Positions 8,939 through 28,680 of a DNA stretch of 64,000 nucleotides are shown piece by piece (the first letter of the stretch is position 1; each line of letters starts with the position of its first letter). The stretch is from Streptacidiphilus pinicola (GTDB lineage: Bacteria > Actinomycetota > Actinomycetes > Streptomycetales > Streptomycetaceae): positions 1 to 64,000 of the forward strand of contig NZ_QKYN01000022.1 of the NCBI RefSeq assembly GCF_003258295.1. The letters run 5' to 3'. The notes beneath the pieces were generated by a model. It searched no databases. It was not told where the DNA came from and was given only the letters and a program-made list of their open reading frames with translations. The position numbers were made by a program, and so were the translations under genes.

Positions 8939-11278
8939 TCAGAGCGCGACGAGCTGCCAGTCCTGGTTGGCGCCGCCGGTCGAGGGCCACTGGATGATCT
9001 GGGTGCCGTCGGCGGTCGAGGCGTTCGCGACGTCCGCGCACCAGCCGGTACGGCTGTTGACGAGCCGGTAGTACCCGCTGGTGGTCGAGGGGACCAGCTG
9101 CCACCACTGGTTGTCGCTGCCCGTGTCGGTCCACTGGTCCAGGCTCGCGCCTTGGGCGGAACCGCCGGGGCTCTCCAGCAGCAGGCCGCTGTGGCCGTTG
9201 ACGAGCCGGGAGGACCCGTCCACGTTCGACACCAGGTTCCACTGCTGGTTGGACCCGCCGCTCCAGGGCCACTGGATGACCGCGGCGCCGTCGGCGGTCG
9301 AGGAGCCGTTGACGTCCAGCACCTTGCCGCTGTTGCGGTTGACCAGCTTGAACGGGCCCGAGACCGCCGAGAACGGCCGGTCGTAGAGCTCCAGGCTGCG
9401 GATGGAGGCCCACACGCCGGACGGCAGCCCGGTGACGGTGACGCGTACGAACCGTGCCTGGGCCCGGAAGGCGGCCGCCTGCACCTGGCTGGTCGCGGTG
9501 GTGGCGGTGTTGTCGACGAGCGTGGTCCAGGAGCGGTTGTCGGTGGACGCGTCGATCCGGTACCGGTAGTTGGTCTTGTCCATTTCCCAGGCGATCCGGG
9601 TGCCGGTCAGCGAGCGGGTCGAGCCGAGGTCGACGGTGAGCCAGTGCCCCGTGTTGCCGTCGTTCGCGCACCAGCGCGTCGCGGTGTTCCCGTCCACCGC
9701 GTTCGCGGCGACGTTGCCCTTGGACGCCTCGACGCTGTCGGCCGTCGCCGTGCTGCCGACGGCGATGTCGGCCGGCTGCACGGAGCGGTCCAGGGAGACG
9801 CCGACGACGCTGTCCTCGGGGTGGGCGGTGCGGTCGATGCCGTTGATGGTGACCCGGCCGTCGCTGCCGGTCGAGTACGTCAGAGCGGCGCCGGAGCGGA
9901 CGTCGAAGACGCGCGTGACCTGTGCGTCACCGATCGGCGGGGTGGTGAAGGAGGTGCCGCTGTACCCGGGCAGCAGGTGGACGTAGAAGGTGTCGCCCAG
10001 GTAGGTGAAGCCGTACTGGCCGTCGACCGGGTTCCACGGGCCGCCGCGGGTCTTGTAGATCGACTGGCCGCAGTCGGTCATGAAGGCGCCGATCTGCCGT
10101 AGCAGGGCCGCCTGCGGGGCGGAGACCGTGCCGTGCCGGTCCGGACCGACGTTGACCATCGCGGTCATGTTCCGGATCCAGCAGTTGACCAGGATGTCCA
10201 TGGCGGTGCCGTAGCTCATCACGGTGGCGGTGGCGTTGTAGCCCCAGGTGCCGTCGACGGTGAAGACCTTCTCGACGAGCTGACCGGTGCGGATCGCCCC
10301 GCTCGGCACCGAACCGCCCTCGTCGCTGGCGTAGTCGCCCATCCAGCCGGAGCGTGAGGTGGCGACGATGCCGGGCTGGTGCTTGCGGACCACGCCCATC
10401 AGACCCAACGGGTTGCCGCTGCTGTCGGTGTCGCCGTAGACCGCGTCCACCGGCCACTGGTTGGCGGTGTCCCGGTACTGGCCGGGCTCCCAGAAGAAGG
10501 CGGCGTCGGCGTCGGTGCCCTGCTCCGCGATCCAGCCGCCGTCCCACCACAGGTCGTCGATCACGCCGTACTGGGTGACGAGCTCCTTGACGGACTCGTA
10601 CACCTCGGTCTTCATGATCCGCGCGTTCTCCTTGTGCGCGGGGTCGGTGGTGTAGTTCCAGGGGTTGGGCGCGCAGTTGGTGCCGTACACGTCGTAGTAG
10701 CCGGGGTAGCGCCAGTCGATCGGCGAGTAGTAGAGGCCGACCCGCAGCCCGGCCGCCCGCACCGCCGCCACGTACTCCTTCACGAAGTCGCGGCTGAGCG
10801 GCGCCTGACCGGAGTTCCAGCTGTTGGGGTGGTTGAGCGGCCACAGCGCGAAGCCGTCGTGGTGACGCGTGGTCAGCGTGACGTACCCGGCGCCGAAGTC
10901 CTTGGCCAGCTGCACCCAGGCCGACGGGTCGTAGGCGTCCGCGGTGAACTGCTCACTGGTGGCGTCGGTGACGTACAGCTGGTAGTCGGCGGGGGTGATG
11001 GCCGCGTTGTGCATGTACCACTCGCCCTTGGCCGGGCCCGCGTACACGCCCCAGTGGATGAACATGCCCAGCTTGGCGTCCTGCAGCCACTGGATCCCGG
11101 AGTCCGGCTGCTGTTCGACGCCGAGGTCGGACTGCGGGATCCGCAGGGGCGGCAGGGGTAGGGGGTCGGCCGTGGCGGCGAACGCGGGCGTCGCCAGGGC
11201 GACGGGGCCGATCGCGGCGGCCGCGGTCATGGCCGCCATACCGGCGAGCACCGCCCGGCGGGATAGGGGTTCCGGCAT
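8939..11278 (-). CDS. secreted GH29 alpha-L-fucosidase with F5/8-type C and ricin-type modules
   Basis: A 779-residue secreted alpha-L-fucosidase. Residues 1-35 contain a twin-arginine-type leader (SRRAVLAGM). The GH29 domain (about 40-480) has the opening AKLGMFIHWGVY and TTRHHDGFALW segments, and the nucleophile Asp in DDLWWDGGW. A discoidin/F5-8 type C domain (about 505-640, WLTVDLGS) and a CBM13 trefoil (about 645-779, QQW repeats) follow. It lies 48 bases downstream of the GH95 gene and is probably the last gene of the fuc operon. Its expected product is free L-fucose from plant or microbial glycans, to be taken up by the importer in the same operon. Confidence 0.93.
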   Translation of the reverse strand: MPEPLSRRAVLAGMAAMTAAAAIGPVALATPAFAATADPLPLPPLRIPQSDLGVEQQPDSGIQWLQDAKLGMFIHWGVYAGPAKGEWYMHNAAITPADYQLYVTDATSEQFTADAYDPSAWVQLAKDFGAGYVTLTTRHHDGFALWPLNHPNSWNSGQAPLSRDFVKEYVAAVRAAGLRVGLYYSPIDWRYPGYYDVYGTNCAPNPWNYTTDPAHKENARIMKTEVYESVKELVTQYGVIDDLWWDGGWIAEQGTDADAAFFWEPGQYRDTANQWPVDAVYGDTDSSGNPLGLMGVVRKHQPGIVATSRSGWMGDYASDEGGSVPSGAIRTGQLVEKVFTVDGTWGYNATATVMSYGTAMDILVNCWIRNMTAMVNVGPDRHGTVSAPQAALLRQIGAFMTDCGQSIYKTRGGPWNPVDGQYGFTYLGDTFYVHLLPGYSGTSFTTPPIGDAQVTRVFDVRSGAALTYSTGSDGRVTINGIDRTAHPEDSVVGVSLDRSVQPADIAVGSTATADSVEASKGNVAANAVDGNTATRWCANDGNTGHWLTVDLGSTRSLTGTRIAWEMDKTNYRYRIDASTDNRSWTTLVDNTATTATSQVQAAAFRAQARFVRVTVTGLPSGVWASIRSLELYDRPFSAVSGPFKLVNRNSGKVLDVNGSSTADGAAVIQWPWSGGSNQQWNLVSNVDGSSRLVNGHSGLLLESPGGSAQGASLDQWTDTGSDNQWWQLVPSTTSGYYRLVNSRTGWCADVANASTADGTQIIQWPSTGGANQDWQLVAL

Positions 11279-11326
11279 CGTGGTTCCTCCAGTTCGATCA
11301 GTGCTGAGTTCGGTGGCGGGAGGGGA

Positions 11327-14218: not shown

Positions 14219-14265
14219 GACAGGTACTCCTTCGGCTCGGGCCGGACACGGGGTGGGTGCCGGGT

Positions 14266-14329
14266 GGTGCTCCAGGAAGTCGGTGTTCCAGGACGTCGGT
14301 GCTCGGGGACGTTGGTGCTGCGGGAAGGT
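14266..14329. repeat. four tandem 16-bp repeats between permease and GH95 genes
   Basis: Four units beginning GGTGYTSC lie head to tail at 14266-14281, 14282-14297, 14298-14313 and 14314-14329; for example GGTGCTCCAGGAAGTC and GGTGTTCCAGGACGTC. The array ends at the stop codon of the permease gene. Its function is unknown; it may be a slippage-generated spacer or an RNA-level signal between the transport genes and the fucosidases. Confidence 0.7.
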
Positions 14330-15363
14330 CAGTCCTGCGCCTTGCCGCCGGTGATGCGGGAGATGACCAGGGCGACCAGGATGATCGCGCCGTTGAGGGC
14401 GCCGATCCACTGGGCCGGGACGCCGCCCAGGGTGAGCACGTTCTGGATCAGGAAGAGCAGCAGGATGCCGGTGAAGGCCCCGAACATGCTGCCCTTGCCG
14501 CCGTTGAGGCTGATGCCGCCGATGACCGCCGCGGCGAAGACGGTGAAGATGTCGCCGTTGCCCTGCGCGGAGGCGACCGAGGCGAGGCGTCCGGAGAGCA
14601 TCAGGCCGCTGAGCGCGGCCAGCAGGCCGGCGGTCACCATCACCGTCCACAGCACCCGGTCGGTCCGGATGCCGGCGGCCTTGGCCGCGTCGATGTTGCC
14701 GCCGATGGCGTACAGGGAGCGGCCGAAGCTGGTGAAGCCCAGGACGACGATCCCGGCAGCGAACAGCAGCAGGCAGATCCACACCGAGGCGGGGACGCCG
14801 AGCCACTCGGTGGTGCCGAGATAGAGCATCGAGCCGGGCAGGTTGAAGAAGGTCTGGCCGCTCGAAATGCCGGTGAGCAGGCCGCGCAGAACGATCAGCA
14901 TGCCCAGGGTCACGATGAAGCCGTTCAGTCCGAAGCGGATGATGAACAGGGCGTTGACGGCGCCGACCACCAGGCCCACGGCCAAGGTGACCGGGACGGC
15001 CCAGGCGCCGGGAAGCAGGCCGAGCCCGTGGCCCGCCCCGGCCGGGACGGTGAGCCAGGCGGCGATGCCGGGCGCGAGACCGACGGTGGACTCGAGCGAG
15101 AGGTCCATCTTCTTGACGATCAGGACCAGCGTCTCCGCCAGCACCAGGACGGCCATCTCGGACATGGTCTGCAGGACGTTGACGAGGTTGTCGGTCTGCA
15201 GGAACACCGGGTTGACGAGCTGTCCGACGATCGCGATCACCACGATCGCGGGGATGAGCGCCAGGTCCCGCAGCCGCGCCACGGCGATCCGGCGCACCGG
15301 GCGGGCGCCGGCCGGTGCGCTCGGAACGGTTGTCGTGGTGGTGGTCTCGGTGGTCTCAGACAC
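14329..15363 (-). CDS. ABC sugar transporter permease, CUT2/RbsC type
   Basis: A 344-residue polytopic membrane protein of the RbsC family with about ten hydrophobic segments and characteristic motifs (FIVTLGMLIVLRGL, GRSLYAIGGNIDAAKAAGI, AAVIGGISLNGGKGS). It would form the channel of the importer encoded with the ATPase and binding protein upstream. I choose GTG 15363, which overlaps the ATPase stop by eight bases and starts just before the low-complexity Thr-rich N terminus. The longer open frame upstream is only a shadow of the ATPase gene. The fuc context suggests L-fucose or a fucoside as cargo. Confidence 0.9.
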   Translation of the reverse strand: MSETTETTTTTTVPSAPAGARPVRRIAVARLRDLALIPAIVVIAIVGQLVNPVFLQTDNLVNVLQTMSEMAVLVLAETLVLIVKKMDLSLESTVGLAPGIAAWLTVPAGAGHGLGLLPGAWAVPVTLAVGLVVGAVNALFIIRFGLNGFIVTLGMLIVLRGLLTGISSGQTFFNLPGSMLYLGTTEWLGVPASVWICLLLFAAGIVVLGFTSFGRSLYAIGGNIDAAKAAGIRTDRVLWTVMVTAGLLAALSGLMLSGRLASVASAQGNGDIFTVFAAAVIGGISLNGGKGSMFGAFTGILLLFLIQNVLTLGGVPAQWIGALNGAIILVALVISRITGGKAQD

Positions 15364-16873
15364 GGAGATCCATTCCTTCCATGGCGGCCACCAGGGCGTG
15401 GTCGTGCCAGCCGCGTTGCATCTCGCCGACGATCCGGCCCTGGAAGAAGACCAGGACCCGGTCGCACAGCCGTAAGTCGTCCAGTTCGTCGGAGGCGACC
15501 AGCACGGCGGTGCCGCGGTCGGCGGTCTCCTCGACCTTGCCGAGCAGGAACTCCTTGGAGCGCACGTCCACACCCGCGGTGGGGTTGATCAGCACCAGCA
15601 GTCCGGGGTCGTTGGCCAGGGCGCGGGCCATGACGACCTTCTGCTGGTTGCCGCCGGAGAGGCCGGAGACGTGCTGACCGGGCCCAGGGGTCTTGATGGC
15701 CAGGTTGTCGATCATGGTGTGGGCGAGGGCGTCCCGGCGGCGGCCGTCGATGAGGCCGCGGGGGCCCAACCGCTCCGGGACGGTGAGCGTGCCGTTGTCC
15801 GCGATGGACATCTCCGGCACATAGCCCTGGTGGTGGCGGTCCTGGGGTACGAAGCCGACCCCGGCCGCCAGCGCGGCCGGGACACTGCCGGGGCGCGGCC
15901 GTCGCCCGCCGATGCGCACCTCACCGGCGTCGGCCGCCCGCAACCCGACCACGGTCTCGGCCAGTTCGGTCCGGCCGCTGCTCGCCGCGCCCGCCAGGCC
16001 CACGATCTCGCCGGCACTCACGGCGAACGACACGTCCTGGTACCCGCCGGTGGCGGAGAGGCCCGCCACCGACAGGACCTCCGCCGTGCCGTCGGTCCGG
16101 GCCGGACGGGGCCGCCCACCCGGTGCCGCTCCGCGGTCCGCATCGCCCGTCATCGCGGCTACCAGCTCCGTCCGCGGCAGGTCGTCGACCCGGGAGGTGA
16201 GGATGTGCCGGGCGTCCCGGAAGACCGTCACCGTGTCGCAGAGGTCGTAGATCTCCTGCAGGTGGTGGCTGATGAACAGGAAGGTGACGCCCTGCTGCTG
16301 GAGTTCCCTGATCCGGTCGAAGAGCCGGTTGATCGCCGCGCCGTCGAGCTGGGCGGTGGGCTCGTCCAGCACGATGAACCGCGCACCGAAGGAGAGGGCG
16401 CGGGCGATCTCCACGAACTGGCGTTGCTCGACCGAGAGTTCGGCGGCCGGGGTGCTGACGTCCACGTCGACCGACCAGGTCTCCAGCAGCTCGCGGGCTT
16501 GGCGCCGGACGGTACGCCAGCTGATCAGGCCGCCGCGGGCGTGCGCGTGACGGTTCAGGAAGAGGTTCTCCGCCACGGTGAGCTCGGGAATGATCGTCGA
16601 CTTCTGGTAGACGCAGGCGACCCGGCGTCTCCAGGCGTCCCGGTCGGCGACGCGGGGCGCCGGCTCGCCGCCGAACGTGACCGTTCCCTCGTCGGGTGCC
16701 TGCAGGCCGGTCAGGATCGAGACCAGCGTGGACTTGCCGGCGCCGTTGCGGCCGACCAGGGCGTGGGTCTCCCCGGCCAGGACGGTGAGGTGCGCGTCGC
16801 GCAGGGCCACCGTCGACCCGAACCGCTTGGTGACCGCCGTCGCCTCGGCGACGGGCGGGGTCGTGCTGCCCAT
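15356..16873 (-). CDS. ABC sugar transporter ATPase, duplicated domains (CUT2/RbsA type)
   Basis: A 505-residue protein with two ABC domains in tandem. The first has Walker A GRNGAGKST, a QQQ-type helical region and Walker B IVLDEPTAQLD. The second has a degenerate Walker A region (AGAASSGRTE), signature LSGGNQQKVVMARAL and LVLINPTAGVD. This one-site-degenerate arrangement is typical of RbsA/MglA/XylG. The ATG at 16873 is preferred over GTG 16882, whose Shine-Dalgarno spacing would be only two bases. It drives the importer formed with the adjacent permease and lipoprotein. Confidence 0.92.
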   Translation of the reverse strand: MGSTTPPVAEATAVTKRFGSTVALRDAHLTVLAGETHALVGRNGAGKSTLVSILTGLQAPDEGTVTFGGEPAPRVADRDAWRRRVACVYQKSTIIPELTVAENLFLNRHAHARGGLISWRTVRRQARELLETWSVDVDVSTPAAELSVEQRQFVEIARALSFGARFIVLDEPTAQLDGAAINRLFDRIRELQQQGVTFLFISHHLQEIYDLCDTVTVFRDARHILTSRVDDLPRTELVAAMTGDADRGAAPGGRPRPARTDGTAEVLSVAGLSATGGYQDVSFAVSAGEIVGLAGAASSGRTELAETVVGLRAADAGEVRIGGRRPRPGSVPAALAAGVGFVPQDRHHQGYVPEMSIADNGTLTVPERLGPRGLIDGRRRDALAHTMIDNLAIKTPGPGQHVSGLSGGNQQKVVMARALANDPGLLVLINPTAGVDVRSKEFLLGKVEETADRGTAVLVASDELDDLRLCDRVLVFFQGRIVGEMQRGWHDHALVAAMEGMDLRV

Positions 16874-16892
16874 TTCACGCACCGCCTTCCGG

Positions 16893-17951
16893 TCAGCCGA
16901 GGTGGTTGCCCCACAGGGAGGAGTCCGTGCTCGTCAGGGAGGTGATGCCGCCGTACGTCCCGCCGTCGGCGGTGACCAGCGGGGCGGAGAGCTGGTCCTC
17001 CAGCAGACCGGGCCGGACCTGCACGATCTGGCTGCCGTGGTCGGTCGGGCCGGGCTTGAACACCTTCCCCGCGATCGCGGACTGCAGGTAGTACAGGGCG
17101 TACTTCGCGTAGAGGTCGGCGGGCTGCGAGACCGTGGCGTCGATCTTCCCGGCGGCGATGTCCTTCAGCTCCTCCGGGATGCCGTCGTTGGAGACCACGA
17201 ACACGTGCTTCGGATCCTTGGGGCCGGCCAGCAGCCCCTTCTGCTGGAGGACCTGGAGGGTGCCCGCAAGGGCGAAGCTGGACTGCATGTAGACGCCCTT
17301 GACGTCCGGATGCGCCGTCAGGTCGGTCTGCAGCTTCTGGGCCGCGGTCGCCGCGTCCCAGTTGGTGGCCTCGCCGTAGACGGTGACGGAGGGGAAGTTC
17401 TGCTTCATGCAGGCGTTGAACGCCTCGGTGCGGTCGCGGCCGTTGATGGAGGCGAGGTCGCCCTCCAGCATGACCACCGAGCCCTTGCCGCCGAGCTTGG
17501 TGCCGAGGAACTCGCACGCCTTCTGCCCGTAGGCGCGGTTGTCGGCGCGGACCACCATGTAGACGTCGCCGGTGTCCGGGCGGGTGTCGACGGTGACCAC
17601 GGGGATCTTCTTGGCGTTGAGCTGGGCCAGGGTCGGCGCGATGGCGGCCGTGTCCTGGGGCGCCATGGCGACGCCTTTCACGTCCTCGGCCACGAAGGTC
17701 TGGACGTTCGCGGCGAGCTTGGCGACGTCATTCTGCGAGTTGGTGGTTTTCAGGCTCAGGCCGAGCTGCTTGGCGTACTGCGGTGTGTACTGGATGTAGG
17801 AGTTCCAGAAGTCGGTGTCGGACCGGGGGTAGTCGACGCCGACGACCTGGGCCCCGGCACCGCCGCCGGCGGATGTCGTGCTCGCGCAGCCGGCGAGCGG
17901 GGCGAGGGCGAGGAGAGCGGCGGCACGTACGGTGAGGTGTCTGAGCTTCAT
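16893..17951 (-). CDS. sugar-binding lipoprotein of the fuc ABC importer
   Basis: A 352-residue substrate-binding protein of the periplasmic-binding-protein-4 (RbsB-like) type. The leader MKLRHLTVRAAALLALAPLAGC ends in a lipobox, so the mature protein is anchored outside by the Cys. The core contains VAMAPQDTAAIAPTLAQL and IPVVTVDTRPD, as expected for a pentose/deoxyhexose binder. The start is ATG 17951; an open frame upstream is not needed. It is 40 bases downstream of the SDR gene and upstream of its ATPase, in operon order. By context it binds L-fucose or fucosyl oligosaccharides; this is inference. Confidence 0.9.
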   Translation of the reverse strand: MKLRHLTVRAAALLALAPLAGCASTTSAGGGAGAQVVGVDYPRSDTDFWNSYIQYTPQYAKQLGLSLKTTNSQNDVAKLAANVQTFVAEDVKGVAMAPQDTAAIAPTLAQLNAKKIPVVTVDTRPDTGDVYMVVRADNRAYGQKACEFLGTKLGGKGSVVMLEGDLASINGRDRTEAFNACMKQNFPSVTVYGEATNWDAATAAQKLQTDLTAHPDVKGVYMQSSFALAGTLQVLQQKGLLAGPKDPKHVFVVSNDGIPEELKDIAAGKIDATVSQPADLYAKYALYYLQSAIAGKVFKPGPTDHGSQIVQVRPGLLEDQLSAPLVTADGGTYGGITSLTSTDSSLWGNHLG

Positions 17952-17991
17952 GGTGGCCTGCCCAAGGGATACGAGGGTGGTGGAGGGTGGC

Positions 17992-18756
17992 TCAGCTGGG
18001 ACGGGGAGGGCGCAGGCGGAGGCCGTCCATGCCTCCGTCGACGGCCAGGTCGGTGCCGGTGGTCGCGCCCGCGAGCGGGCTGGCGAGGTAGGCGATGGCG
18101 GCGGCCACCTCGTCGGGGGTGACCAGTCGCCCGAGGGGCTGACGGGCCCTGAGCGCGGCGCGTTCGTCGGCCGGATCGTCGGCCCGGCCGAGCAGCCGGT
18201 CGACCCAGGGGGTGGCGACCGTACCGGGGTTGACACAGGTGACGCGGATGCCGTCGGCGACGAGGTCGGCGGCCATCGCGCGGGTCATCGCGAGCACGGC
18301 GCCCTTCGAGGCCGAGTAGAGCACGCGGTCGGGCAGCCCGGCGGTGGCGGCGACGGAGCAGGTGTTGACGATCGCCGGGGCGGCCGACCGCCGCAGGTAG
18401 GGTAGGACGGCGCGGGTCGTTCTGACCACGCCGAGGACGTTCACCTCCAGGACCTGGCGCCATTCGTGGTCCGGGTTGTCCTCGATGCCACCCTGGGCGC
18501 CGATCCCGGCGTTGTTGACCAGGATGTCCACGCCACCGAGGAGTTCGGCGGCCCAGGTCACCCCGGCGCGGACGGACTCCTCGTCCGCGACGTCGACGTG
18601 GGCCCTGACCATCGGCTCGGGAACGTCCTGCGGGTTGAGGTCCAGACATGCGACGCGAGCGCCGCGCGCGGTCAGCAGTTGGGCGGTGGCGAGCCCGATG
18701 CCCGAGGCCCCTCCGGTGACGACGGCGGTCAGGCCGTCGAACTCCAGGTCGCTCAT
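17992..18756 (-). CDS. short-chain dehydrogenase, probable 2-keto-3-deoxy-L-fuconate dehydrogenase
   Basis: A 254-residue classical SDR with the cofactor motif [12 protein letters not shown], and the catalytic Ser (NTCSVAAT) and YSASK. Its start codon overlaps the stop of the L-fuconate dehydratase gene by four bases (ATGA), so the two are translationally coupled. In the non-phosphorylating L-fucose pathway the enzyme after FucD is a 2-keto-3-deoxy-L-fuconate 4-dehydrogenase of exactly this family. An alternative role as L-fucose dehydrogenase is possible and cannot be excluded from sequence. Confidence 0.85.
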
Positions 18757-20060
18757 GCGGGGTGCTCCTCGCGCCAGACGGGGCCGTCGGGGTAGCGGTG
18801 CTCGGCGGCGGAGGCAGGGTGGAGTTCGGCGCCGATGCCGGGGGCGGTGGGCGCCAGGTAGCGTCCCTCGCGGATCCGTACCGGGGCGGTGAAGTGCTCA
18901 TGCAGGTGGTCGACGTACTCGACGACCCGGTCCTCGGTCGTGCCGCTGACGGCCACGTAGTCGAACATCGCCAGGTGCTGCACCATCTCGCACAGCCCGA
19001 CGCCGCCCGCGTGCGGGCAGACCGGCACGCCGAACTTGGCGGCCAGCAGCAGGATCGCGACGTTCTCGGTGACGCCGGCGGTGCGGCTCGCGTCCAGCTG
19101 CAGCACGTCGAGCGCCTGGGCCTGGAGCAGCTGCTTGAACATCACCTGGTTGTGGCAGTGCTCGCCGGTGGCGACCTTGACGGGTGCGACCGCGCGCCGG
19201 ATCGCCGCGTGGCCGAGGATGTCGTCGGGGGAGGTCGGCTCCTCGATCCAGTACACGTCGTGCGCCGCGAGCGGGGCCATCCAGTCGATCGCCTGCCGCA
19301 CGCCCCAGGCCTGGTTGGCGTCGACGGCGATCCGGATGTCAGGGCCGACCGCCTGGCGGGCCAGGGCGACGCGGCGCAGGTCGTCGGCCGGATCCGCGCC
19401 GACCTTCAGCTTGATCTGGGTGAAGCCGTCGGCGACGGCCTGCTTCGCGAGCCGGACGAGCTTCTCGTCGGTGTAGCCGAGCCAGCCGGGGGAGGTGGTG
19501 TAGGCCGGGTAGCCCTCCGTGAGCAGGCGCTGCCTGCGTTCGGCCCGGCCGGGCTCGGCGCGGCGCAGGATGTCCAGTGCCTCGTCGCGGGTGAGGGCGT
19601 CCTCCAGGTACCGGAAGTCGACCAGGTCGACGAGTTGTTCGGGCGTCAGGTCGCTGAGGAGCTCCCAGACCGGCTTGCCCTCGCGGCGGCCGTACAGGTC
19701 CCAGACGGCGTTCACGATCGCGGCGGCCGCCATGTGGATCGCGCCCTTCGCCGGTCCCAGCCAGCGCAGTTGGCTGTCGCCGACGAGCCGGCGGGAGAAC
19801 CCGCCGAGGTCGCCCAGCACCTCGTCCACCGGCAGGCCCACGACGAGTGGGGCGAGCGCCCGCACCGCCGCGACCTCCACCTCGTTGCCGCGCCCGACGG
19901 TGAACGCCAGCCCGTGGCCGGCCTGGCCGGTGCTCGTACGGATCGTCACGTAGGCGGCGGAGTAGTCGGGTTCGGGGTTCAGCGCGTCGGAGCCGTCCAG
20001 CTGACGGGAGGTCGGGAACCTGATGTCGGCGGCCTCGACGGCGGTGATCACTTCGGTCAC
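18753..20060 (-). CDS. fucD: L-fuconate dehydratase (enolase superfamily)
   Basis: A 435-residue mandelate-racemase-type enolase superfamily enzyme that would turn L-fuconate into 2-keto-3-deoxy-L-fuconate. Visible active-site elements are the KLK base motif in [10 protein letters not shown], metal ligands in [17 protein letters not shown] and ATGEHCHN, and the second-base segment [13 protein letters not shown]. The length and the N-terminal [16 protein letters not shown] segment fit the L-fuconate dehydratase subgroup. The GTG at 20060 follows AGAGG with a short gap. It is the first gene of the leftward fuc operon and is read divergently from the GntR regulator. Confidence 0.9.
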
Positions 20061-20248
20061 GGCGCCTCTTTTGCCTTGCCTGGATACATGGGATGGATTT
20101 ATAGGAGGAGCGGCTGTCGGCGTCCAGGGGTCGCGCAGTGGAAGTTTGAAAGTCCCAGGTGAATAAGGTTTTTTGACAGGCTGGCATGGCTTGGTCAGAT
20201 GACAGGCGATCCAATGTCTTCCGTAGACATGGGATCTCCTGTTAGGTT
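20061..20248. promoter_or_regulatory. divergent fuc promoter region with GntR/FadR-type operator
   Basis: A 188-base region between fucD and the GntR gene. The imperfect palindrome GATCCAATGTCT (20208-20219) / AGACATGGGATC (20225-20236) matches at 11 of 12 positions with a 5-base spacer and lies just upstream of the regulator start. The half-site ACATGGGAT is repeated at 20086-20094, close to the fucD start. This is the expected pattern for autoregulation and control of the divergent operon by a FadR-subfamily protein. Confidence 0.7.
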
Positions 20249-20992
20249 GTGGCCGTGTCACTGACCGACAAGGCCATCGCCCGTATCCGCCGGATGATCA
20301 GGGACGGTGAGCTTCCCCCGGGGTCCAAGCTGCCCCCGGAGCAGGAGCTCGCCGCCGAGCTCGGGCTGTCGCGGAACATGATGCGCGAGGCCGTCAAGAC
20401 GCTCGTGGTCGCCCGGGTCCTGGAGATCCGGCGAGGCGACGGCACCTACGTGACCAGCCTGGAGCCCGGCCTGCTGCTGGAGGGCCTGGGCGGCGCCGTC
20501 GAACTGCTGCAGGGGGACACCGTCCTGGAGCTGACGGAGGTGCGCAGGCTCCTCGAACCGGCCGCCACCGGTGTGGCCGCGGCGCGCATCACCGACGACG
20601 CCCTCGCGGAGGTGGAGCACCACCTGTCCGCCATGCGCGCGGCGCGGGACGACGTCGAGCGCTTGAACCACCACGACGCCGCCTTCCACCGCGCCGTGAT
20701 CCGCGCCACCGGCAACGAGACCCTGGCCACCCTGCTGGAGCACATCTCCGGTCGCACGCTGCACGCACGGATCTGGCGCGGGCACGTCGACGCCGACGCG
20801 GCCGACCGGACCATCGCCGAGCACGAGGCCATCCACCAGGCTCTCCGAGCCCACGACTCTGCCCTGGCCCAGGCTGCGGCGCTGCTCCACGTCGACACCA
20901 CCGAGCGCTGGCTGCGTGAGCACCTGGCCGAGGGAGCAGCCCTCCCCGCCGACGCCTCCGAGCCCGCCTTGGACCCACCCCGTTCTGCCTGA
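20249..20992 (+). CDS. GntR/FadR-family transcriptional regulator of the fuc island
   Basis: A 247-residue regulator. A winged-helix GntR domain occupies about 8-75 ([27 protein letters not shown]), followed by an FCD all-helical ligand domain (about 90-220) with the Asp and His residues that usually bind metal and a carboxylate ligand ([20 protein letters not shown]). FadR-type proteins commonly sense sugar acids, so L-fuconate or 2-keto-3-deoxyfuconate is a plausible effector. The start is GTG 20249 or GTG 20255. A matching palindrome lies just upstream. Confidence 0.88.
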
Positions 20993-21034
20993 ACTCCTAG
21001 CGACCCACCACACGCCGACCGAGGAGCGTCGCGG

Positions 21035-21916
21035 GTGAGAATCGACGCGCACCACCACATCTGGCAGTTGACCCGCCGTCCGCAGTCCTGGCTCGACGTA
21101 CCGGAGTTGGCGCCCATCCGGCGCGACTTCGGCCTCGCCGACCTGGCGCCGCAGGCCCGGGCGGCGGAGATCGAGGGCACCGTGCTGGTGCAGGTCCTGC
21201 CGGACCTGGACGAGACCCGCGAGTTCCTCGTTCTCGCCGCCACCTCACCGCTGGTTGCGGGCGTCGTCGGCTGGGCGGACCTCACCGCGCCGCAGCTCGC
21301 CGACACCCTGGCCGAACTGCGCCGAGGCCCCGGCGGCGAACTGCTCGTCGGCGTGCGCCACCTGGTCCAGGGCGAGCCCGACCCGGCCTGGCTCTCCCGG
21401 CCCGACGTCCGGCGCGGACTGCGCACCGTCGGTGACGCCGGACTCGGCTACGACCTGCTCACCCTGCCCCGCCAACTGCCCGCCGCCATCGACACCGTCC
21501 GCGCCCTGCCCGGGCAGACGTTCGTCCTCGACCACCTCTCCAAGCCGCCGATCGCCCGTGGCACGCTCCAGCCCTGGGCCGCCCTGCTGCGCGAACTGGC
21601 CCGCGAACCCAACGTGTTCTGCAAACTCTCCGGGCTGGTCACGGAGGCCGACCCCGCCGCCTGGAGCGTCGCCGACCTGCGCCCTTACACCGAGACCGCC
21701 CTCGACGCCTTCGGACCCGAACGGGTCATGTTCGGCTCGGACTGGCCGGTCTGCCTGGTGGCCGCATCGTACGAGCAAGTCGTCAGCACCGCCGACGAGT
21801 TGACGTCATCTCTTGACCCGTACGAACGGGCGCAGGTCTTCGGCGGCACGGCGGCCCGGGCCTACGGGCTGCCGCGCGAACCGAAGCCGCCGGGCGCCGA
21901 GGAGGAGCCGGCATGA
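21035..21916 (+). CDS. amidohydrolase-family lactonase, probable L-fucono-1,5-lactonase
   Basis: A 293-residue amidohydrolase-2 (COG3618) enzyme. It begins RIDAHHHIWQL with metal-binding histidines and carries FVLDHLSKPPI, NVFCKLSGLVTE and the closing MFGSDWPVC motif. This family includes the L-fucono/L-rhamnono lactonases of non-phosphorylating deoxysugar pathways; here it would open L-fuconolactone to L-fuconate, the FucD substrate. The GTG start has GAGGAG eight bases upstream. Its stop overlaps the larA start by four bases (ATGA), so lactonase and racemase are translationally coupled. Confidence 0.88.
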   Translation: MRIDAHHHIWQLTRRPQSWLDVPELAPIRRDFGLADLAPQARAAEIEGTVLVQVLPDLDETREFLVLAATSPLVAGVVGWADLTAPQLADTLAELRRGPGGELLVGVRHLVQGEPDPAWLSRPDVRRGLRTVGDAGLGYDLLTLPRQLPAAIDTVRALPGQTFVLDHLSKPPIARGTLQPWAALLRELAREPNVFCKLSGLVTEADPAAWSVADLRPYTETALDAFGPERVMFGSDWPVCLVAASYEQVVSTADELTSSLDPYERAQVFGGTAARAYGLPREPKPPGAEEEPA

Positions 21917-23202
21917 AGGTCCGCCTGGCCTACGGCGAGACCGGACTCGACATCGACGTCGACCCGGCCGTCACGACCGTGGTCGAGCCCCTGCACCACC
22001 CCGGCGCCGCCGACGAGTCCGCCGTGCTGCGGGAGGCGCTGCGCCGTCCGGTCGCCGGGCCGCCGCTGCGGGAGCGGGTCAGGCCGGGGCAGACGGTGGC
22101 CATCTCCGCCTGCGACGGGACCCGACCGCAGCCGCGCCACCTGATGATCCCGGCCGTCCTCGCCGAGCTCGACGGGATCGTCCGCCCCGAGGACGTGGTC
22201 GTCCTCGTCGCCACCGGCACCCACCGGGGTAACGACCCGGACGAGCTGCGGCGCATGTTCGGCGACGAGGTGGTCGACCGGATCCGGATCGTCAACCACG
22301 ACGCCCGCGACGCGACCCGGCTCGCGTGGATGGGGATCTGGGGCGACGGCGTCCCGGTTCGGCTCAACCGCGCCTGGGTCGAGGCCGACGTCCGCATCAC
22401 CACCGGTTTCGTCGAACCGCACTTCTTCGCCGGCTTCTCCGGCGGACCCAAGCTGGTGGCACCGGGCCTCGCCGGACTGGAGACGGTGCTGGTCCTGCAC
22501 GACGCCGAGCGCATCGCGGACCCCCGGGCCACCTGGGGCGTCACCCACGGCAATCCCGTCCACGACGACGTACGGGCCATCGCCGAGGGCACCGGTGTGG
22601 ACTTCGCCCTGGACGTCGTCCTCAACCGGGAGCAGCGCATCGTGGCGGCCTTCGGCGGCGACCTGCTGCCGATGCACGCCGCGGCCACCGCCGCCGCCCG
22701 CCGCATCGCGATGTGCCCGGTCGACCAGCGCTTCGACGTGGTCGTCACCACCAACGCCGGACATCCGCTCGACCAGAACCTCTACCAGTCGGTCAAGGGC
22801 ATGTCCGCAGCGCACACCGTGGTCCGGCCCGGCGGGCTGATCGTCTGCGCGGCCGAGTGCCGCGACGGCTTCCCCGACCACGGCTCCTACCGCGAGGTGT
22901 TGGCCTCGGCGCCCTCCCCGCAGGCGCTGCTCGCCGACATCCGCGCCAGGTCGCAGACCGTGCCCGACCAGTGGCAGGTGCAGGTCCAGGCCCGCATCCA
23001 GGCCTCGTGCCGCGTGGTGATGCACACCTCCCACCTCAGCGACGCCGAGCTGGCCACCGCGCACCTGGAGCAGACCGCCGACATCTCGGCGACCGTGGCC
23101 GAGGCGCTGGCCGCGGCGGGCCCGGACGCCCGGGTCTGTGTCCTGCCGGAGGGGCCCATGACGATCCCCTACCTGCGGAACGGCGCCGACACGGCGAGAT
23201 GA
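21913..23202 (+). CDS. larA: LarA-family nickel-pincer hydroxyacid racemase/epimerase
   Basis: A 429-residue LarA homologue. Family hallmarks are visible: DGTRPQPRH, ATGTHRGND (catalytic His), EPHFFAGFSGGPKLVAPG (catalytic His and the Lys that carries the nickel-pincer nucleotide), THGNPVHDDV and QSVKGMSAA. Classical LarA interconverts L- and D-lactate; other members racemise or epimerise different 2-hydroxyacids. The fuc context gives two candidates: L-lactate, the end product of the pathway, or a sugar acid intermediate such as fuconate. The gene overlaps the lactonase stop. The accessory genes larB, larC and larE follow directly. Confidence 0.93.
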   Translation: MKVRLAYGETGLDIDVDPAVTTVVEPLHHPGAADESAVLREALRRPVAGPPLRERVRPGQTVAISACDGTRPQPRHLMIPAVLAELDGIVRPEDVVVLVATGTHRGNDPDELRRMFGDEVVDRIRIVNHDARDATRLAWMGIWGDGVPVRLNRAWVEADVRITTGFVEPHFFAGFSGGPKLVAPGLAGLETVLVLHDAERIADPRATWGVTHGNPVHDDVRAIAEGTGVDFALDVVLNREQRIVAAFGGDLLPMHAAATAAARRIAMCPVDQRFDVVVTTNAGHPLDQNLYQSVKGMSAAHTVVRPGGLIVCAAECRDGFPDHGSYREVLASAPSPQALLADIRARSQTVPDQWQVQVQARIQASCRVVMHTSHLSDAELATAHLEQTADISATVAEALAAAGPDARVCVLPEGPMTIPYLRNGADTAR

Positions 23203-23279
23203 CGCGCGCCAGGATCCTGCCGCGCCCGCCGTTCGGCCGCTCACTCTTCTCGTAACAACTGCACCAGGAGCACAGCCAC

Positions 23280-23960
23280 ATGCACCCCACCCGCGTCCAC
23301 GATCTCGACTTCGCCCAACTGGACGTCGGCCGCGAGCAGCGCCAGGGACTGCCCGAGGTCGTCTACGGCCCCGGCAAGACGCCCGCCCAGATCCGCGCCA
23401 TCACCGCACAGTTGCTGCAGCACAACGCCGGACCGGTGCTGGTCTCCCGGGTGGACGCCGAGACGGCGGCCGACGTCCTCGACGACGTCCCCGGAGGGTC
23501 CTACGACGTCACGGCCGGACTGCTCGTCTGGCGTCCGGCCGCGCCGAACGGCTTCGCGCTGACCGTTGTCTCCGCCGGAACCTCAGACGGGCCGGTCGCC
23601 CAGGAAGCCGCCGCCGTGGCGCGGGCCGTGGGCCTGTCGGTCACGACCGTGAACGACGTCGGAGTCGCGGGCCTGCAGCGCGTACTCCGGGTCCAGGAAC
23701 AGCTGCGCGACAGCGACGCGGTGGTCGTCGTCGCCGGAATGGAGGGCGCGCTCGCGAGCGTCGTCGGCGGCCTCGTCGGCTGCCCGGTGATCGCCGTGCC
23801 GGTCTCGACCGGCTACGGGGCGTCGCTCGCCGGCGTAACCGCCCTGCTGGCCATGCACGCCTCCTGCGCCGCCGGGATCACCGTCGTCAACATCGACTCC
23901 GGCTTCGGCGCGGCCATGGCAGCCCACCGTCTCGCCTGGGCGAGGAGCCGGCGCACATGA
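23280..23960 (+). CDS. larB: LarB, pyridinium-dicarboxylate synthase for the nickel-pincer cofactor
   Basis: A 226-residue PurE-like protein. LarB carboxylates nicotinic acid adenine dinucleotide and hydrolyses it to the dicarboxylated mononucleotide, the first step in making the nickel-pincer cofactor. The N-terminal extension (LDVGREQRQGLPEVVYGPGKT) and the PurE-fold core with SAGTSDGPVAQEAA and VVVVAGMEGALASVVGGL are clear. CAGGAG lies upstream of the ATG. It is separated from larA by 77 bases and overlaps larC by four (ATGA). Confidence 0.93.
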   Translation: MHPTRVHDLDFAQLDVGREQRQGLPEVVYGPGKTPAQIRAITAQLLQHNAGPVLVSRVDAETAADVLDDVPGGSYDVTAGLLVWRPAAPNGFALTVVSAGTSDGPVAQEAAAVARAVGLSVTTVNDVGVAGLQRVLRVQEQLRDSDAVVVVAGMEGALASVVGGLVGCPVIAVPVSTGYGASLAGVTALLAMHASCAAGITVVNIDSGFGAAMAAHRLAWARSRRT

Positions 23961-25177
23961 TCTGCTGGATCAACCCCTTCACCGGCCTGGCCGGAGACAT
24001 GCTCCTGGGCGCCCTGCTGGACGCGGGAGCGCCGCTGGACCTGGTCAGGGCCGCGATCGGCGCGACCGGCCTCACCGGCTGGGAACTCGACGCCGAGCGG
24101 GTCACCACCCACGGCCTCGTCGCGACGAGCGCGCGGGTGCGGGTGACCGACACCGCCACCGAGCGGCGCGCCGCCGAACTGCTGGAGTTGGCCGCTCGCG
24201 CGCGGCCGGAGCCGGTGGCCGCGTGGAGCATCGCGGCGCTCACCGCGATCGCCCGCGCCGAAGGCCGCCTGCACGGCACCGATCCGGCCGAGGTCCACCT
24301 GCACGAACTCGGCGGCCACGACGCCCTGGTGGACATCGTCGGCGTCGCCGCCGCGCTCCACGCCCTCGGCGTGACCGACGTGGTCTGCGCGCCGCTGCCG
24401 CTCGGGACCGGACACGTCTCGGCGGCCCACGGCCGGCTGCCCTGCCCGGCGCCCGCCACCCTGGAGCTGCTGCGCGGCGCAGCCGTGGTCGGCACCGACC
24501 TCGGCGGGGAGACCGTCACGCCGACCGGCGCCGCCCTGCTGCGCGCGGCCGGAGCCCGCTACGGCCCACTGCCGCCGATGACGCCGACCGCCACCGGATA
24601 CGGCGCGGGGACGCGCGAACTGGCCGACCGCCCCAACGTCGTGTCCGTCACGCTCGGCCATCCGATGTCTCCGCCCGGCCCGCCCGGCCCACCCGGCCCG
24701 ATCGGTCCGGCCGTCGCGACGGAGGACGTCGTGACCCTGGAGAGCAACCTCGACGACGTCACCGGCGAGACCCTGGCCCACACGATCGCCCGCGCCCTCG
24801 CCGAAGGCGCGCTGGACGCCTGGACGACGCCGGCCGTGATGAAGAAGGGCCGTCCCGCGCAGGTGCTGCACGTCCTGGCCCGGCCGGAGGACGTCGGTCG
24901 GCTCCGCGAGCTGATCCTGGCCGAGACCGGCACGCTCGGCGTCCGGCAGACCGCCCAGACGCGCGTCGCGGCACCCCGTCGGACGAGCGGCGTCGAGGTC
25001 GACGGGCTGCCGGTCCGGGTGAAGTACGGACCCTTCGGCGTCAAGGCGGAGCACGACGACGCCGCGGCCGTGGCCGGGCGACTCGGCCTGCCGTTGCGCC
25101 TCGTCGCCGACAGGGCCCGGAGCCTGGCCGAGCAGGAACACCCCAACGCGTCGACGACGGAAGGCGGAACCCGATGA
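23957..25177 (+). CDS. larC: LarC, CTP-dependent nickel insertase (single-frame, with collagen-like linker)
   Basis: A 406-residue LarC that would insert nickel into the pincer nucleotide. The N-terminal part (NPFTGLAGDMLLGALLDAGA, EVHLHELGGHDALVDIVG, PTGAALL) and C-terminal part (LESNLDDVTGETL, MKKGRPAQVLHVL) correspond to LarC1 and LarC2. In Lactiplantibacillus plantarum these are joined by a ribosomal frameshift; here one uninterrupted frame encodes both. The join is a Pro-Gly stretch (PPGPPGPPGPIGP, about residues 237-249), a short collagen-like spacer. It overlaps larB and larE by four bases each. Confidence 0.93.
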   Translation: MICWINPFTGLAGDMLLGALLDAGAPLDLVRAAIGATGLTGWELDAERVTTHGLVATSARVRVTDTATERRAAELLELAARARPEPVAAWSIAALTAIARAEGRLHGTDPAEVHLHELGGHDALVDIVGVAAALHALGVTDVVCAPLPLGTGHVSAAHGRLPCPAPATLELLRGAAVVGTDLGGETVTPTGAALLRAAGARYGPLPPMTPTATGYGAGTRELADRPNVVSVTLGHPMSPPGPPGPPGPIGPAVATEDVVTLESNLDDVTGETLAHTIARALAEGALDAWTTPAVMKKGRPAQVLHVLARPEDVGRLRELILAETGTLGVRQTAQTRVAAPRRTSGVEVDGLPVRVKYGPFGVKAEHDDAAAVAGRLGLPLRLVADRARSLAEQEHPNASTTEGGTR

Positions 25178-26019
25178 ACAGCCCGACCGAGGGCGAGCAC
25201 GCGGTCGAGGCGAAGGCCGCCGCGCTGCTGTCGACCGTGCGCGAGATCGGGCCGTTCGCCGTCGCCTACTCGGGCGGCACCGACTCCGCCCTCGTGCTGG
25301 CCGCAGGCGTCCGCGCGCTGGGAGCCGGCCGGGTGCTCGCCGTGACGGCGGTCTCCGAGAGCCTGGCCGCCGGCGAGCTCGCCGCCGCTCACGCCCTCGC
25401 CGACGCCCTGGGCGTGGCGCACCTGACGCCCCGCACCGACGAACTGAGCCGCCCCGGATACCGCGCCAACGGCCCGGACCGCTGCTACTTCTGCAAGTCC
25501 GAGGTGCTCGACGTGATCACGGCGCTGGCCCACGCGCACGGCTTCGCGCAGGTCGCGACCGGCACCAACGCCGACGACGCGGCCGACCCCTTCCGGCCGG
25601 GCATCCGCGCCGGACAGGAGCGCGGCATCCGCACCCCGCTGCGGGACTGCGGGCTCACCAAGACGGACGTACGCGCCGTCAGCCGCCTGTGGTCCCTGCC
25701 CACCTGGGACAAACCGGCCACTCCGTGCCTGGCCAGCCGGATCCGCTACGGCATCCCCGTCACCGGCCACCGTCTGGCCCGCGTCGACCGCGCCGAGGCG
25801 GCCGTGCGCGCCTCACTCGACAGCGCCGGGCTCAGATCCGGACAACTGCGTGTGCGCGACCTCGGCGACACGGTCCGCATCGAACTCGACATCGAGATCG
25901 TGCAGGCGGCCGCCCGGCTGCCCTCCCTCGTCGACGCCGTCGCGCGGGCGGGCTTCGGCGCGGCGCCCGTCGTGGTTGACGGATTCGCCTCGGGCCGGCT
26001 CAACCACGAGCAGCGCTGA
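25174..26019 (+). CDS. larE: LarE, ATP-dependent sulfur transferase for the nickel-pincer cofactor
   Basis: A 281-residue PP-loop enzyme with the ATP site SGGTDS (residues 33-38). LarE adenylates the pyridinium carboxylates and replaces them by thiocarboxylates. Three cysteines are placed as C104-Y-F-C107 and C185 (ATPCLASR). Sacrificial-sulfur LarE of L. plantarum has a single key Cys, whereas three-Cys LarE proteins are known to hold an iron-sulfur cluster; this one fits the latter type. The ATG overlaps the larC stop (ATGA), with GGAAGG upstream. Confidence 0.92.
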   Translation: MNSPTEGEHAVEAKAAALLSTVREIGPFAVAYSGGTDSALVLAAGVRALGAGRVLAVTAVSESLAAGELAAAHALADALGVAHLTPRTDELSRPGYRANGPDRCYFCKSEVLDVITALAHAHGFAQVATGTNADDAADPFRPGIRAGQERGIRTPLRDCGLTKTDVRAVSRLWSLPTWDKPATPCLASRIRYGIPVTGHRLARVDRAEAAVRASLDSAGLRSGQLRVRDLGDTVRIELDIEIVQAAARLPSLVDAVARAGFGAAPVVVDGFASGRLNHEQR

Positions 26020-26041
26020 AACAGGAAGGGTCACCCGCCAG

Positions 26042-26245
26042 ATGTCCACCGTTTCACCCCATGCGTACGTCGAGGACCCGTCGCCCGGCGCGGGCCGCCT
26101 TCGTCCGCGCGCGTAGGACCTCCACCTCCGCCTGGACGCCGACCACCACTGCATCGGCAGCGCCGCGTGCGGTCCGCTGCTGCCGGCTCCGCACACCCTG
26201 GCGGCCGTCCCGACGACCTTCACGATCGGAATGACACCGTGCTGA
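26042..26245 (+). pseudogene. relic of a GH2 (LacZ-type) beta-galactosidase C terminus
   Basis: One frame reads MSTVSPHAYVED..., meets TAG at 26114-26116, and continues in the same frame as DLHLRLDADHHCIGSAACGP with a PAPHTL...TFTIG tail to TGA at 26243. The HLxLDxxxxGxGxxxCGP pattern is the conserved end of LacZ-type beta-galactosidases. The first 900 or so codons are absent. It lies directly behind larE and its end overlaps the next start codon, so a beta-galactosidase gene was probably deleted from the operon. Confidence 0.65.

Positions 26246-28680: not shown

What the first reader, a model, noticed from the sequence alone, without database searches (positions are those of the whole stretch)
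8939..28680. L-fucose utilisation island joined to a complete nickel-pincer racemase (Lar) operon
Seen: GH29 and GH95 fucosidases, an ABC importer, an SDR and fucD on one strand; GntR, lactonase, larA, larB, larC, larE and cytosolic GH95 on the other, with lactonase and larA overlapping by four bases. Known: the non-phosphorylating L-fucose pathway yields pyruvate and L-lactate; LarA with LarB/C/E racemises lactate, and other LarA homologues act on different 2-hydroxyacids. Inference: here LarA either converts the L-lactate formed to D-lactate for oxidation, or epimerises a sugar acid such as fuconate. Tight lactonase-larA coupling makes the second option worth testing. I know of no described fucose cluster with a built-in Lar cofactor pathway.
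Basis: partly seen in the sequence, partly recalled or inferred. Interest (0 to 1): 0.8.

Follow-up and report, generated by a model that had tools for sequence, protein, structure and literature searches.

The report
Fucose gene cluster with nickel racemase
Many soil actinomycetes tie a nickel-cofactor racemase to their genes for breaking down the sugar L-fucose, and neighbouring glycerate kinase genes suggest that it flips the small acid left at the end (lactate or glycerate) so that the cell can use it.

Summary
In detail: fucosidases, ABC importer, SDR and fucD on one strand; GntR, lactonase, larA, larB, larC, larE and a cytosolic GH95 on the other, with lactonase and larA overlapping by ATGA. 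The linkage is not local. Of the 80 best named LarA relatives (374 found), 47 have at least two of five oxidative L-fucose genes within 10 kb; the overlap and a fucD/GntR operator are conserved. LarA has the lactate-racemase pocket (F, F, W, Q) and all catalytic residues, which disfavours a fuconate epimerase. I infer a racemase of the three-carbon acid released at the pathway's end: L-lactate from L-fucose and, perhaps more importantly, L-glycerate from L-galactose, for D-glycerate kinase to use. The substrate is unproven and the lactate reading stays open. The window's cluster lacks intact fucose dehydrogenase and FAH hydrolase; intact homologues lie on other contigs.

The parts
8939..11278 (-). 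secreted GH29 alpha-L-fucosidase with F5/8-type and ricin-lectin domains
   Evidence: Pfam PF01120 E 4.5e-56, PF00754, PF14200
11327..14218 (-). secreted GH95 with ricin-type lectin domain; start placed by me at an ATG before a twin-arginine-like signal
   Evidence: PF22124 E 8.1e-67; start checked by translation
14329..15375 (-). sugar ABC permease (start approximate)
   Evidence: conserved next to fucD in relatives; no domain scan run on it
15356..16882 (-). ABC ATPase of a sugar importer
   Evidence: PF00005, 2 stretches
16893..17951 (-). periplasmic sugar-binding protein (lipoprotein-like)
   Evidence: PF13407 E 3.9e-52 on the longer frame
17992..18756 (-). SDR, probable L-2-keto-3-deoxyfuconate 4-dehydrogenase
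   Evidence: PF13561; PDB 8xwk, H. huttiense L-KDFDH, E 2.6e-37, fifth among many SDRs; conserved beside fucD
18753..20060 (-). fucD, L-fuconate dehydratase (enolase superfamily; start approximate)
   Evidence: PDB 1yey E 1.6e-198
20086..20103 (+). candidate operator ACATGGGATGGATTTATA in the divergent fucD/GntR promoter; a second ACATGGGAT lies at 20227
   Evidence: core 9-mer in 18 of 18 divergent fucD/GntR promoters; 1 match in the window; 1 exact match in the whole genome
20249..20992 (+). GntR/FadR-type regulator
   Evidence: PF00392, PF07729
21035..21916 (+). amidohydrolase-family L-fuconolactonase
   Evidence: PF04909; NF052480 226.7 bits, below its cut-off of 400; PDB 4dlf E 2e-52
21913..23202 (+). 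larA, nickel-pincer 2-hydroxyacid racemase, lactate-racemase group
   Evidence: NF033504 548.5 bits against cut-off 460; PDB LarA structures; residues
23280..23960 (+). larB, NPN cofactor synthesis
   Evidence: NF033503 252.9 bits against cut-off 175
23957..25177 (+). larC, nickel insertion, one unbroken ORF with C1 and C2 parts
   Evidence: TIGR00299 and NF052512 above cut-offs
25174..26019 (+). larE, sulfur insertase with a CXXC-C motif
   Evidence: TIGR00268 281.7 bits against cut-off 150, on a longer frame; alignment to L. plantarum LarE; motif described in PMC9283937
26239..28680 (+). GH95 in which no signal peptide was noticed (cytosolic alpha-L-fucosidase or alpha-L-galactosidase); start approximate
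   Evidence: PF22124 E 7.1e-159; PDB 2rdy, 7kmq, 4ufc
54781..56028 (+). chimeric remnant: FAH hydrolase (residues 5-269 of the L064 homologue) fused in frame to the C-terminal third of the AKR

Best explanation
The window holds the regulated core of an oxidative (non-phosphorylating, Route III) L-fucose-type pathway into which a LarA racemase and its whole cofactor factory are built. Secreted and cytosolic fucosidases free the sugar and the ABC system imports it. An AKR encoded elsewhere oxidises it; lactonase, FucD and SDR carry it on, and an FAH hydrolase encoded elsewhere splits the product into pyruvate plus an L-2-hydroxyacid of three carbons. With L-fucose that acid is L-lactate; with L-galactose (6-hydroxy-L-fucose) the same chemistry gives L-glycerate. 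LarA with the nickel-pincer cofactor made by LarB, LarC and LarE then inverts C2. D-glycerate is taken up by glycerate kinase, and D-lactate could be oxidised. Shown: gene content, intact Lar proteins, lactate-racemase pocket, conserved linkage, conserved overlap, conserved operator, glycerate kinase coupled to larA in relatives. Inferred: the substrates, L-galactose as a growth sugar, and the completion of the pathway by genes on other contigs.
For: Linkage: 10 of 15 larA-bearing genomes in a family sample of 150 have fucD within 20 kb, and all 15 have fucD somewhere, against 97 of 150 overall. Of the 80 best named LarA loci, 47 have at least 2 of {fucD, lactonase, SDR, AKR, FAH} within 10 kb and 58 at least 1. 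By my start calls, lactonase overlaps larA by 4 bp (ATGA or GTGA) in 26 and by 1 bp in 7 of 36 adjacent pairs. One operator lies between both arms. Glycerate kinase: in 10 of 80 named loci, in each between larA and larB, with a 4-bp overlap in 7 of the 8 loci where both genes were called as neighbours; also between larA and larB in G038 and G122, and in G392 in the group kinase, LctP permease, larA, larE, larB, larC without fucose genes. LutA, LutB and LutC were found in 0 of 80 loci. Pocket F, F, W, Q: the LAR group usually has F, F, W, E/Q, and LarAH43 with Q359 is slightly more efficient on glycerate than on lactate (PMC11770544). Pathway enzymes tolerate L-galactose-type substrates: L-KDFDH acts on L-KDGal at about one fifth of the L-KDF efficiency (PMC11199699), and an AKR dehydrogenase uses D-arabinose, L-fucose and L-galactose (PMC6336799).
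Against: The window's own cluster has no glycerate kinase; the only one found in the genome is on contig C46. 70 of the 80 named loci have none. Q355 is invariant in all 93 LarA rows, so it does not separate glycerate-linked from other members. 22 of the 80 loci have none of the five fucose genes by my thresholds, though three of these keep the GntR gene. One fucose-linked locus (L183, Microbispora) has an FMN-dependent hydroxyacid dehydrogenase gene about 8 kb from larA, 69% identical to one of the window's genome, which would suit lactate. The genome has three FAD-oxidase-type proteins, of which one could be a D-lactate dehydrogenase, so D-lactate is not shown to be a dead end. The Thr at the GH95 specificity site fits L-galactosidase, but two fucosidases share it (PMC10063614). 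FAH and AKR are missing as intact genes from the cluster. In the window's own genus only 1 of 14 genomes has this LarA.
Confidence: 0.6

Rival explanations
1. Lactate-only reading: LarA turns L-lactate from L-fucose into D-lactate, which a D-lactate dehydrogenase oxidises; glycerate plays no part.
For: LarA passes the lactate-racemase equivalog cut-off. L-lactate is the known product of Route III (PMC11199699). Three FAD-oxidase_C proteins exist in the genome. One of 80 loci (L183) has an FMN-dependent hydroxyacid dehydrogenase gene near larA.
Against: No lactate oxidation gene recurs near larA: LutA, LutB and LutC in 0 of 80, the three FAD-type queries in 0 of 80, the two FMN-type queries only in L183. 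The genome already has LutABC on C85 and two strong FMN_dh proteins. In G122 and G068 LutABC-type genes lie inside the fucD cluster itself, yet the lar operon is kept within 17 kb. Glycerate kinase coupling is unexplained.
Confidence: 0.25
2. Sugar-acid epimerase: LarA inverts C2 of L-fuconate or a related hexonate made by the adjacent lactonase.
For: Lactonase and larA overlap by 4 or 1 bp in 33 of 36 adjacent pairs. LarA homologues of other groups do epimerise D-gluconate/D-mannonate (PMC7583248).
Against: Pocket residues are F, F, W, Q, while gluconate epimerases usually have E, V, A, H (PMC11770544). The hexonate epimerase model scores 20.7 bits against 548.5 for lactate racemase. larA also occurs without lactonase, next to an LctP permease and glycerate kinase.
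Confidence: 0.05
3. LarA serves uptake of racemic lactate or glycerate from outside, and is parked in the fucose regulon because both nutrients come from the same plant debris or fermentation.
For: G392 has LctP permease with larA and no fucose genes. 22 of 80 loci lack the five fucose genes.
Against: Overlap with the lactonase gene and the divergent operator argue for one pathway. No LctP-type permease appeared among the window proteins scanned (not all window ORFs were scanned).
Confidence: 0.1

Closest known systems
LarA lactate racemase group (L. plantarum LarA; LarAH42, LarAH43, LarAH51; NCBIfam NF033504)
   Same: Full-length match above cut-off; same catalytic, cofactor and pocket residues; larB, larC, larE present.
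   Different: Sits in a fucose regulon of actinomycetes, coupled to a lactonase and in relatives to glycerate kinase; LarE has the CXXC-C motif that L. plantarum LarE lacks; larC is one ORF (split larC of L. plantarum is recalled).
Non-phosphorylating Route III L-fucose pathway (Xanthomonas, Herbaspirillum, Acidovorax; PMC11199699, PMC6336799)
   Same: FucD, fuconolactonase and SDR here; AKR and FAH in related loci; sugar ABC importer and regulator clustered.
   Different: The passages of those papers that I saw name no racemase or nickel cofactor genes; here AKR and FAH are lost from the cluster.
LarAH19/20 D-gluconate 2-epimerases
   Same: Same superfamily and cofactor; linked to sugar-acid metabolism.
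   Different: Different pocket residues; the score of the window LarA to the hexonate model is marginal.

Membership tests
LarA, lactate-racemase group | Equivalog score above curated cut-off | tested here: met
   NF033504 548.5 bits against 460
LarA, lactate-racemase group | Catalytic and NPN-binding residues (D72, R75, H108, H174, K184, H200, K298 in L. plantarum numbering) | tested here: met
   D68, R71, H104, H170, K180, H196, K295 (residue list from PMC7583248)
LarA, lactate-racemase group | Pocket signature F, F, W, E/Q | tested here: met
   F171, F172, W354, Q355 (signature from PMC11770544)
LarA, lactate-racemase group | Racemase activity on lactate | not testable with these tools
   needs holo-enzyme assay
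NPN biosynthesis set (LarB, LarC, LarE) | All three proteins intact and above cut-off | tested here: met
Route III L-fucose pathway | L-fuconate dehydratase | tested here: met
   1yey E 1.6e-198 over residues 9-438
Route III L-fucose pathway | L-fuconolactonase | tested here: inconclusive
   NF052480 best family but 226.7 below cut-off 400; 4dlf E 2e-52
Route III L-fucose pathway | L-KDF 4-dehydrogenase | tested here: inconclusive
   8xwk is fifth among 80 SDR matches, 60 shown
Route III L-fucose pathway | L-fucose 1-dehydrogenase and diketo-acid (FAH) hydrolase in the cluster | tested here: not met
   only a chimeric remnant in the window; intact homologues on C7, C260 and C195
GntE-type hexonate 2-epimerase | Pocket E, V, A, H | tested here: not met
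   F, F, W, Q; NF052594 20.7 bits against 500
GH95 alpha-L-galactosidase | Thr instead of His two residues before the catalytic Asn pair | tested here: inconclusive
   cytosolic GH95 has TSNIN, but Thr also occurs in two fucosidases

The most novel reading that the evidence does not exclude
This LarA clade is a physiological glycerate racemase, the missing step of an L-galactose pathway: L-galactose is oxidised by the fucose enzymes to pyruvate plus L-glycerate, LarA turns L-glycerate into D-glycerate, and glycerate kinase makes 2-phosphoglycerate. Fucose and L-galactose would be eaten by one regulon with a nickel enzyme as the link.
Probability: 0.4. Interest if true: 0.78.

Novelty: new variant of a known kind. 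Interest (0 to 1): 0.62.

Why it matters
The authors of a LarA survey left open what lactate/glycerate-type LarA enzymes do in vivo (PMC11770544 Discussion). A conserved actinomycete operon that puts LarA after a sugar-acid pathway and beside glycerate kinase makes that question directly testable, proposes how L-glycerate can be used, and gives a candidate route for L-galactose from plant polysaccharides. It would also make growth on these sugars nickel-dependent.

Tried and rejected
A fuconate epimerase was considered and set aside on pocket residues and model scores. I hoped that the GH95 Thr/His site would prove L-galactose; it does not. I looked for lactate dehydrogenases beside larA in the 80 named loci; two of five query frames (L214, L215) were wrong, and the repeat with the right frames found one locus, L183. 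I looked for the operator elsewhere in the genome: besides this promoter only one site with 3 mismatches on contig C213, and no 9-mer core in the fetched stretches around the FAH, AKR, LutABC and glycerate kinase genes, so these are not shown to share the regulator. Loci around LarA relatives without fucose genes (Modestobacter, Kribbella, Actinoallomurus and others) gave no common theme from the few proteins scanned. The first gene caller was poor and was replaced. The LarA tree is a quick one with several long branches; its fucose label is loose (one gene is enough, and L082 and L083 carry it on weak SDR matches), so its label counts are rough. Structure prediction was not used. The thresholds for calling a gene present are mine (identity 35-60% by gene, at least 40% of the query).
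Full report
What is there. The window is the start of contig C102 of an 8.43-Mb, 281-contig genome. On the minus strand lie a secreted GH29 fucosidase, a secreted GH95, a sugar ABC importer (permease, ATPase, binding protein), an SDR and fucD. Divergently on the plus strand lie a GntR/FCD regulator, an amidohydrolase-type lactonase, larA, larB, larC, larE and a GH95 in which I noticed no signal peptide. The lactonase and larA share the sequence ATGA. LarA is the only Lar_N protein found in the genome.

Quality of the assignments. FucD matches the solved X. campestris L-fuconate dehydratase 1yey over its length (E 1.6e-198). The lactonase is closest to the L-fuconolactonase model but below its curated cut-off (226.7 against 400 bits), and matches 4dlf. 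The SDR matches the solved L-2-keto-3-deoxyfuconate dehydrogenase 8xwk at E 2.6e-37, fifth among 80 SDR matches (the code is identified in PMC11199699, passages), so its role is likely but not proved. LarA, LarB, LarC and LarE pass their cut-offs. LarE carries the CXXC-C motif that marks the iron-sulfur type in PMC9283937 (passages).

What is missing. In many related loci an aldo-keto reductase (of the kind used as fucose dehydrogenase) and an FAH-family hydrolase lie near larA. In this window both survive only as one chimeric ORF at 54781-56028, where FAH residues 5-269 run straight into the last third of the AKR. Intact homologues are elsewhere: FAH on C195 (66% identity), AKR on C260 and C7 (58%). 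A second fucD cluster with its own SDR, AKR, mutarotase, importer and regulator lies on C7. So the pathway can in principle be completed by genes in trans, which is inference.

Is the linkage real? In a family sample, 15 of 150 genomes have LarA above cut-off and 97 of 150 have fucD at E 1e-100 or better. All 15 LarA genomes have fucD, 10 of them within 20 kb of larA. By my own rough estimate, one fucD in an 8-Mb genome would fall that close by chance in under 1% of cases; the genomes are related, so this is no formal test. FucD of the window's type (78% identity or more) occurs in 8 genomes, the window's included, and 7 of these have larA within about 5 kb. The eighth, G003 of the window's own genus, has no LarA match; within the 20 kb fetched it keeps fucD, importer, regulator and operator but not lactonase or SDR. 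Within the genus only 1 of 14 genomes has this LarA. In a wider class sample 11 of 394 genomes have it.

Named scan. A search of GTDB species genomes found 374 relatives; the best 80 (72-93% identity, best segment) were examined with up to 10 kb on each side. fucD occurs in 32 of 80, lactonase in 43, SDR in 43, FAH in 41, AKR in 37. At least two of these five are present in 47 of 80, at least one in 58, none in 22; three of the 22 keep the GntR gene, and L151 has a partial lactonase. 15 of the 80 loci are under 15 kb, so genes may have been missed there. Genera with fucose-linked loci include Streptomyces, Kitasatospora, Actinacidiphila, Catenulispora, Amycolatopsis, Lentzea, Saccharothrix, Microbispora, Herbidospora, Nonomuraea and Streptosporangium. 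Where lactonase and larA were called as neighbours, they overlap by 4 bp (ATGA or GTGA) in 26 and by 1 bp in 7 of 36 pairs; this rests on start codons chosen by my gene caller. On a quick tree of 93 LarA rows the loose label fucose-linked needs 13 changes, and the window sits in a clade of six (SH-aLRT 100) with Kitasatospora and Streptomyces relatives.

One regulon. The divergent fucD/GntR promoter carries the 9-mer ACATGGGAT in 18 of 18 such promoters (window plus 17 loci). The 9-mer was picked from these promoters after a k-mer count, so this conservation is partly by selection. The 10-mer ACATGGGATG occurs in 21 of 32 named loci with fucD and in 7 of 48 without. The longer pattern ACATGGGATNNATTTATA occurs once in the window (given there without its last base) and once exactly in the whole genome, at this promoter, with one further site at 3 mismatches on C213; this shows a local operator but, for so long a pattern, uniqueness alone is expected. 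The operator lies between both arms, so the importer/dehydratase arm and the lactonase/lar arm are probably both controlled by the GntR protein. The 9-mer was not found in the fetched stretches around the FAH, AKR, LutABC and glycerate kinase genes elsewhere in the genome.

What LarA acts on. Desguin and co-workers (PMC7583248, abstract, Results and Discussion read; PMC11770544, abstract, first part of Results, structural section and Discussion read) tie substrate choice to pocket positions. Lactate racemases usually have F, F, W, E/Q; gluconate epimerases E, V, A, H. The window LarA has F171, F172, W354, Q355, and W and Q are the same in all 93 LarA rows. A C6 sugar acid is therefore unlikely. 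In PMC11770544 the enzyme with Q at this place (LarAH43) has slightly higher efficiency on glycerate (114 x 10^3) than on lactate (83 x 10^3 per M per s), while LarAH51 (E) and LarA1 (T) prefer lactate by about 10 to 17 fold.

The glycerate kinase clue. In K. humi, two Saccharothrix, five Lentzea loci, one Nocardia and one Solihabitans (10 of 80 named loci) a glycerate kinase gene lies between larA and larB; where both were called as neighbours it overlaps larA by 4 bp in 7 of 8. The family name rests on scans of the K. humi and G392 proteins, the others on similarity to the K. humi protein (55-59% identity). In G392 a group without fucose genes reads glycerate kinase, LctP-family permease, larA, larE, larB, larC. 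The quick tree needs 7 changes for this trait. By contrast LutA, LutB and LutC were found in none of the 80 loci; of five lactate-oxidase-type proteins of the window's genome, the three FAD-type ones matched none and the two FMN-type ones only L183, at 69% and 35% identity. That L183 gene lies in a fucose-linked locus and would suit lactate. In G122 and G068 the fucD cluster itself holds LutABC-type genes (families scanned on G068 only), and the window's genome has LutABC on C85, so L-lactate can probably be oxidised without LarA.

Proposed mechanism. L-fucose gives pyruvate and L-lactate by Route III (PMC11199699, passages). L-galactose differs only by a C6 hydroxyl; the same steps would give pyruvate and L-glycerate (my inference from the chemistry; no paper seen). 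Enzymes of the route tolerate it: the H. huttiense SDR uses L-2-keto-3-deoxygalactonate at about a fifth of its efficiency on the L-fucose-derived substrate, and an AKR of Paraburkholderia mimosarum oxidises D-arabinose, L-fucose and L-galactose (PMC6336799, passages). Glycerate kinases of this family use D-glycerate (recalled), so a racemase would be needed. An alpha-L-galactosidase of GH95 releases L-galactose from corn xylan (PMC4491172, passages). The window has GH54, GH10 and GH5 plant-wall enzymes nearby. The cytosolic GH95 has the Thr of the L-galactosidase, but this is not diagnostic (PMC10063614, passages).

Weaknesses. The window itself lacks a glycerate kinase in the cluster, 70 of 80 named loci have none, the pocket residue Q does not separate the subgroups, one locus has a lactate-type dehydrogenase gene, and the genome has candidate D-lactate oxidases, so the lactate reading stays open. 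No activity was measured.

Novelty. In the open-access library, no paper holds both lactate racemase and glycerate kinase. Five hold lactate racemase, fucose and larA; I looked inside only one, where fucose is a crystallisation additive and part of a reference title, and the other four I know only from the listing. L-galactose with L-glycerate gave one plant ascorbate paper, seen only as a listing. The parts are known; the built-in combination and the glycerate reading appear new within these searches, which miss most subscription journals.

Noticed in passing
window 54781-56028: Chimeric ORF: FAH hydrolase lacking both ends fused in frame to the last third of an AKR. The AKR part is 81% identical to the AKR on C260, where FAH is also found only as fragments (C260:10773-11056).
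   Followed up: partly
G000:C7:33400-44400 (L098): Second fucose-type cluster in the same genome: fucD (68% identity), SDR, AKR, RhaM-like mutarotase, ABC importer, GntR, without lar.
   Followed up: partly
L074 (G392:C12): Group of glycerate kinase, LctP-family permease, larA, larE, larB, larC without fucose genes: a possible stand-alone glycerate/lactate racemisation operon.
   Followed up: partly
L152, L160, L164, L167, L171, L173, L174, L177, L182: In Lentzea and relatives the lar operon is paired with a different enolase-superfamily dehydratase, a RhaM-like mutarotase and another ABC sugar importer (families scanned on L145 and L152 only), perhaps for a different sugar.
   Followed up: partly
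L101-L104, L106, L114: A second type of fucD cluster holds FucU-like and zinc alcohol dehydrogenase genes and, in L103, L106 and L114, KDPG-aldolase and PfkB-kinase genes, with no FAH seen (families scanned on L077 and L103 members only).
   Followed up: no
L183 (Microbispora sp. H13382), about 18550: FMN-dependent hydroxyacid dehydrogenase family gene about 8 kb from larA in a fucose-linked locus, the only lactate-oxidase-type match in the 80 named loci.
   Followed up: no
window 1696-8230: GH54 arabinofuranosidase with lectin domain at 1696-3177, two more proteins of the same similarity cluster at 5128-8230 (not scanned by Pfam), and a GH10 xylanase at 3649-5064.
   Followed up: partly
window 28734-38501: GH5 with CBM_X2/CBM46, a LacI-like regulator (by look, not scanned), a sugar-binding protein with likely permeases (not scanned) and an MGH1-like glycoside hydrolase next to the fucose cluster.
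   Followed up: partly
window 43692-53932: Mce-like operon (ABC ATPase, two YrbE-like and several Mce-like proteins), named from sequence look and recall, not scanned.
   Followed up: no
window 61323-63902: GH48 cellulase (PF02011).
   Followed up: no
L097 (G003:C102): A relative in the same genus keeps importer, fucD, GntR and both operator copies but shows no SDR, lactonase or lar in the 20 kb fetched: a natural lar-free version.
   Followed up: partly
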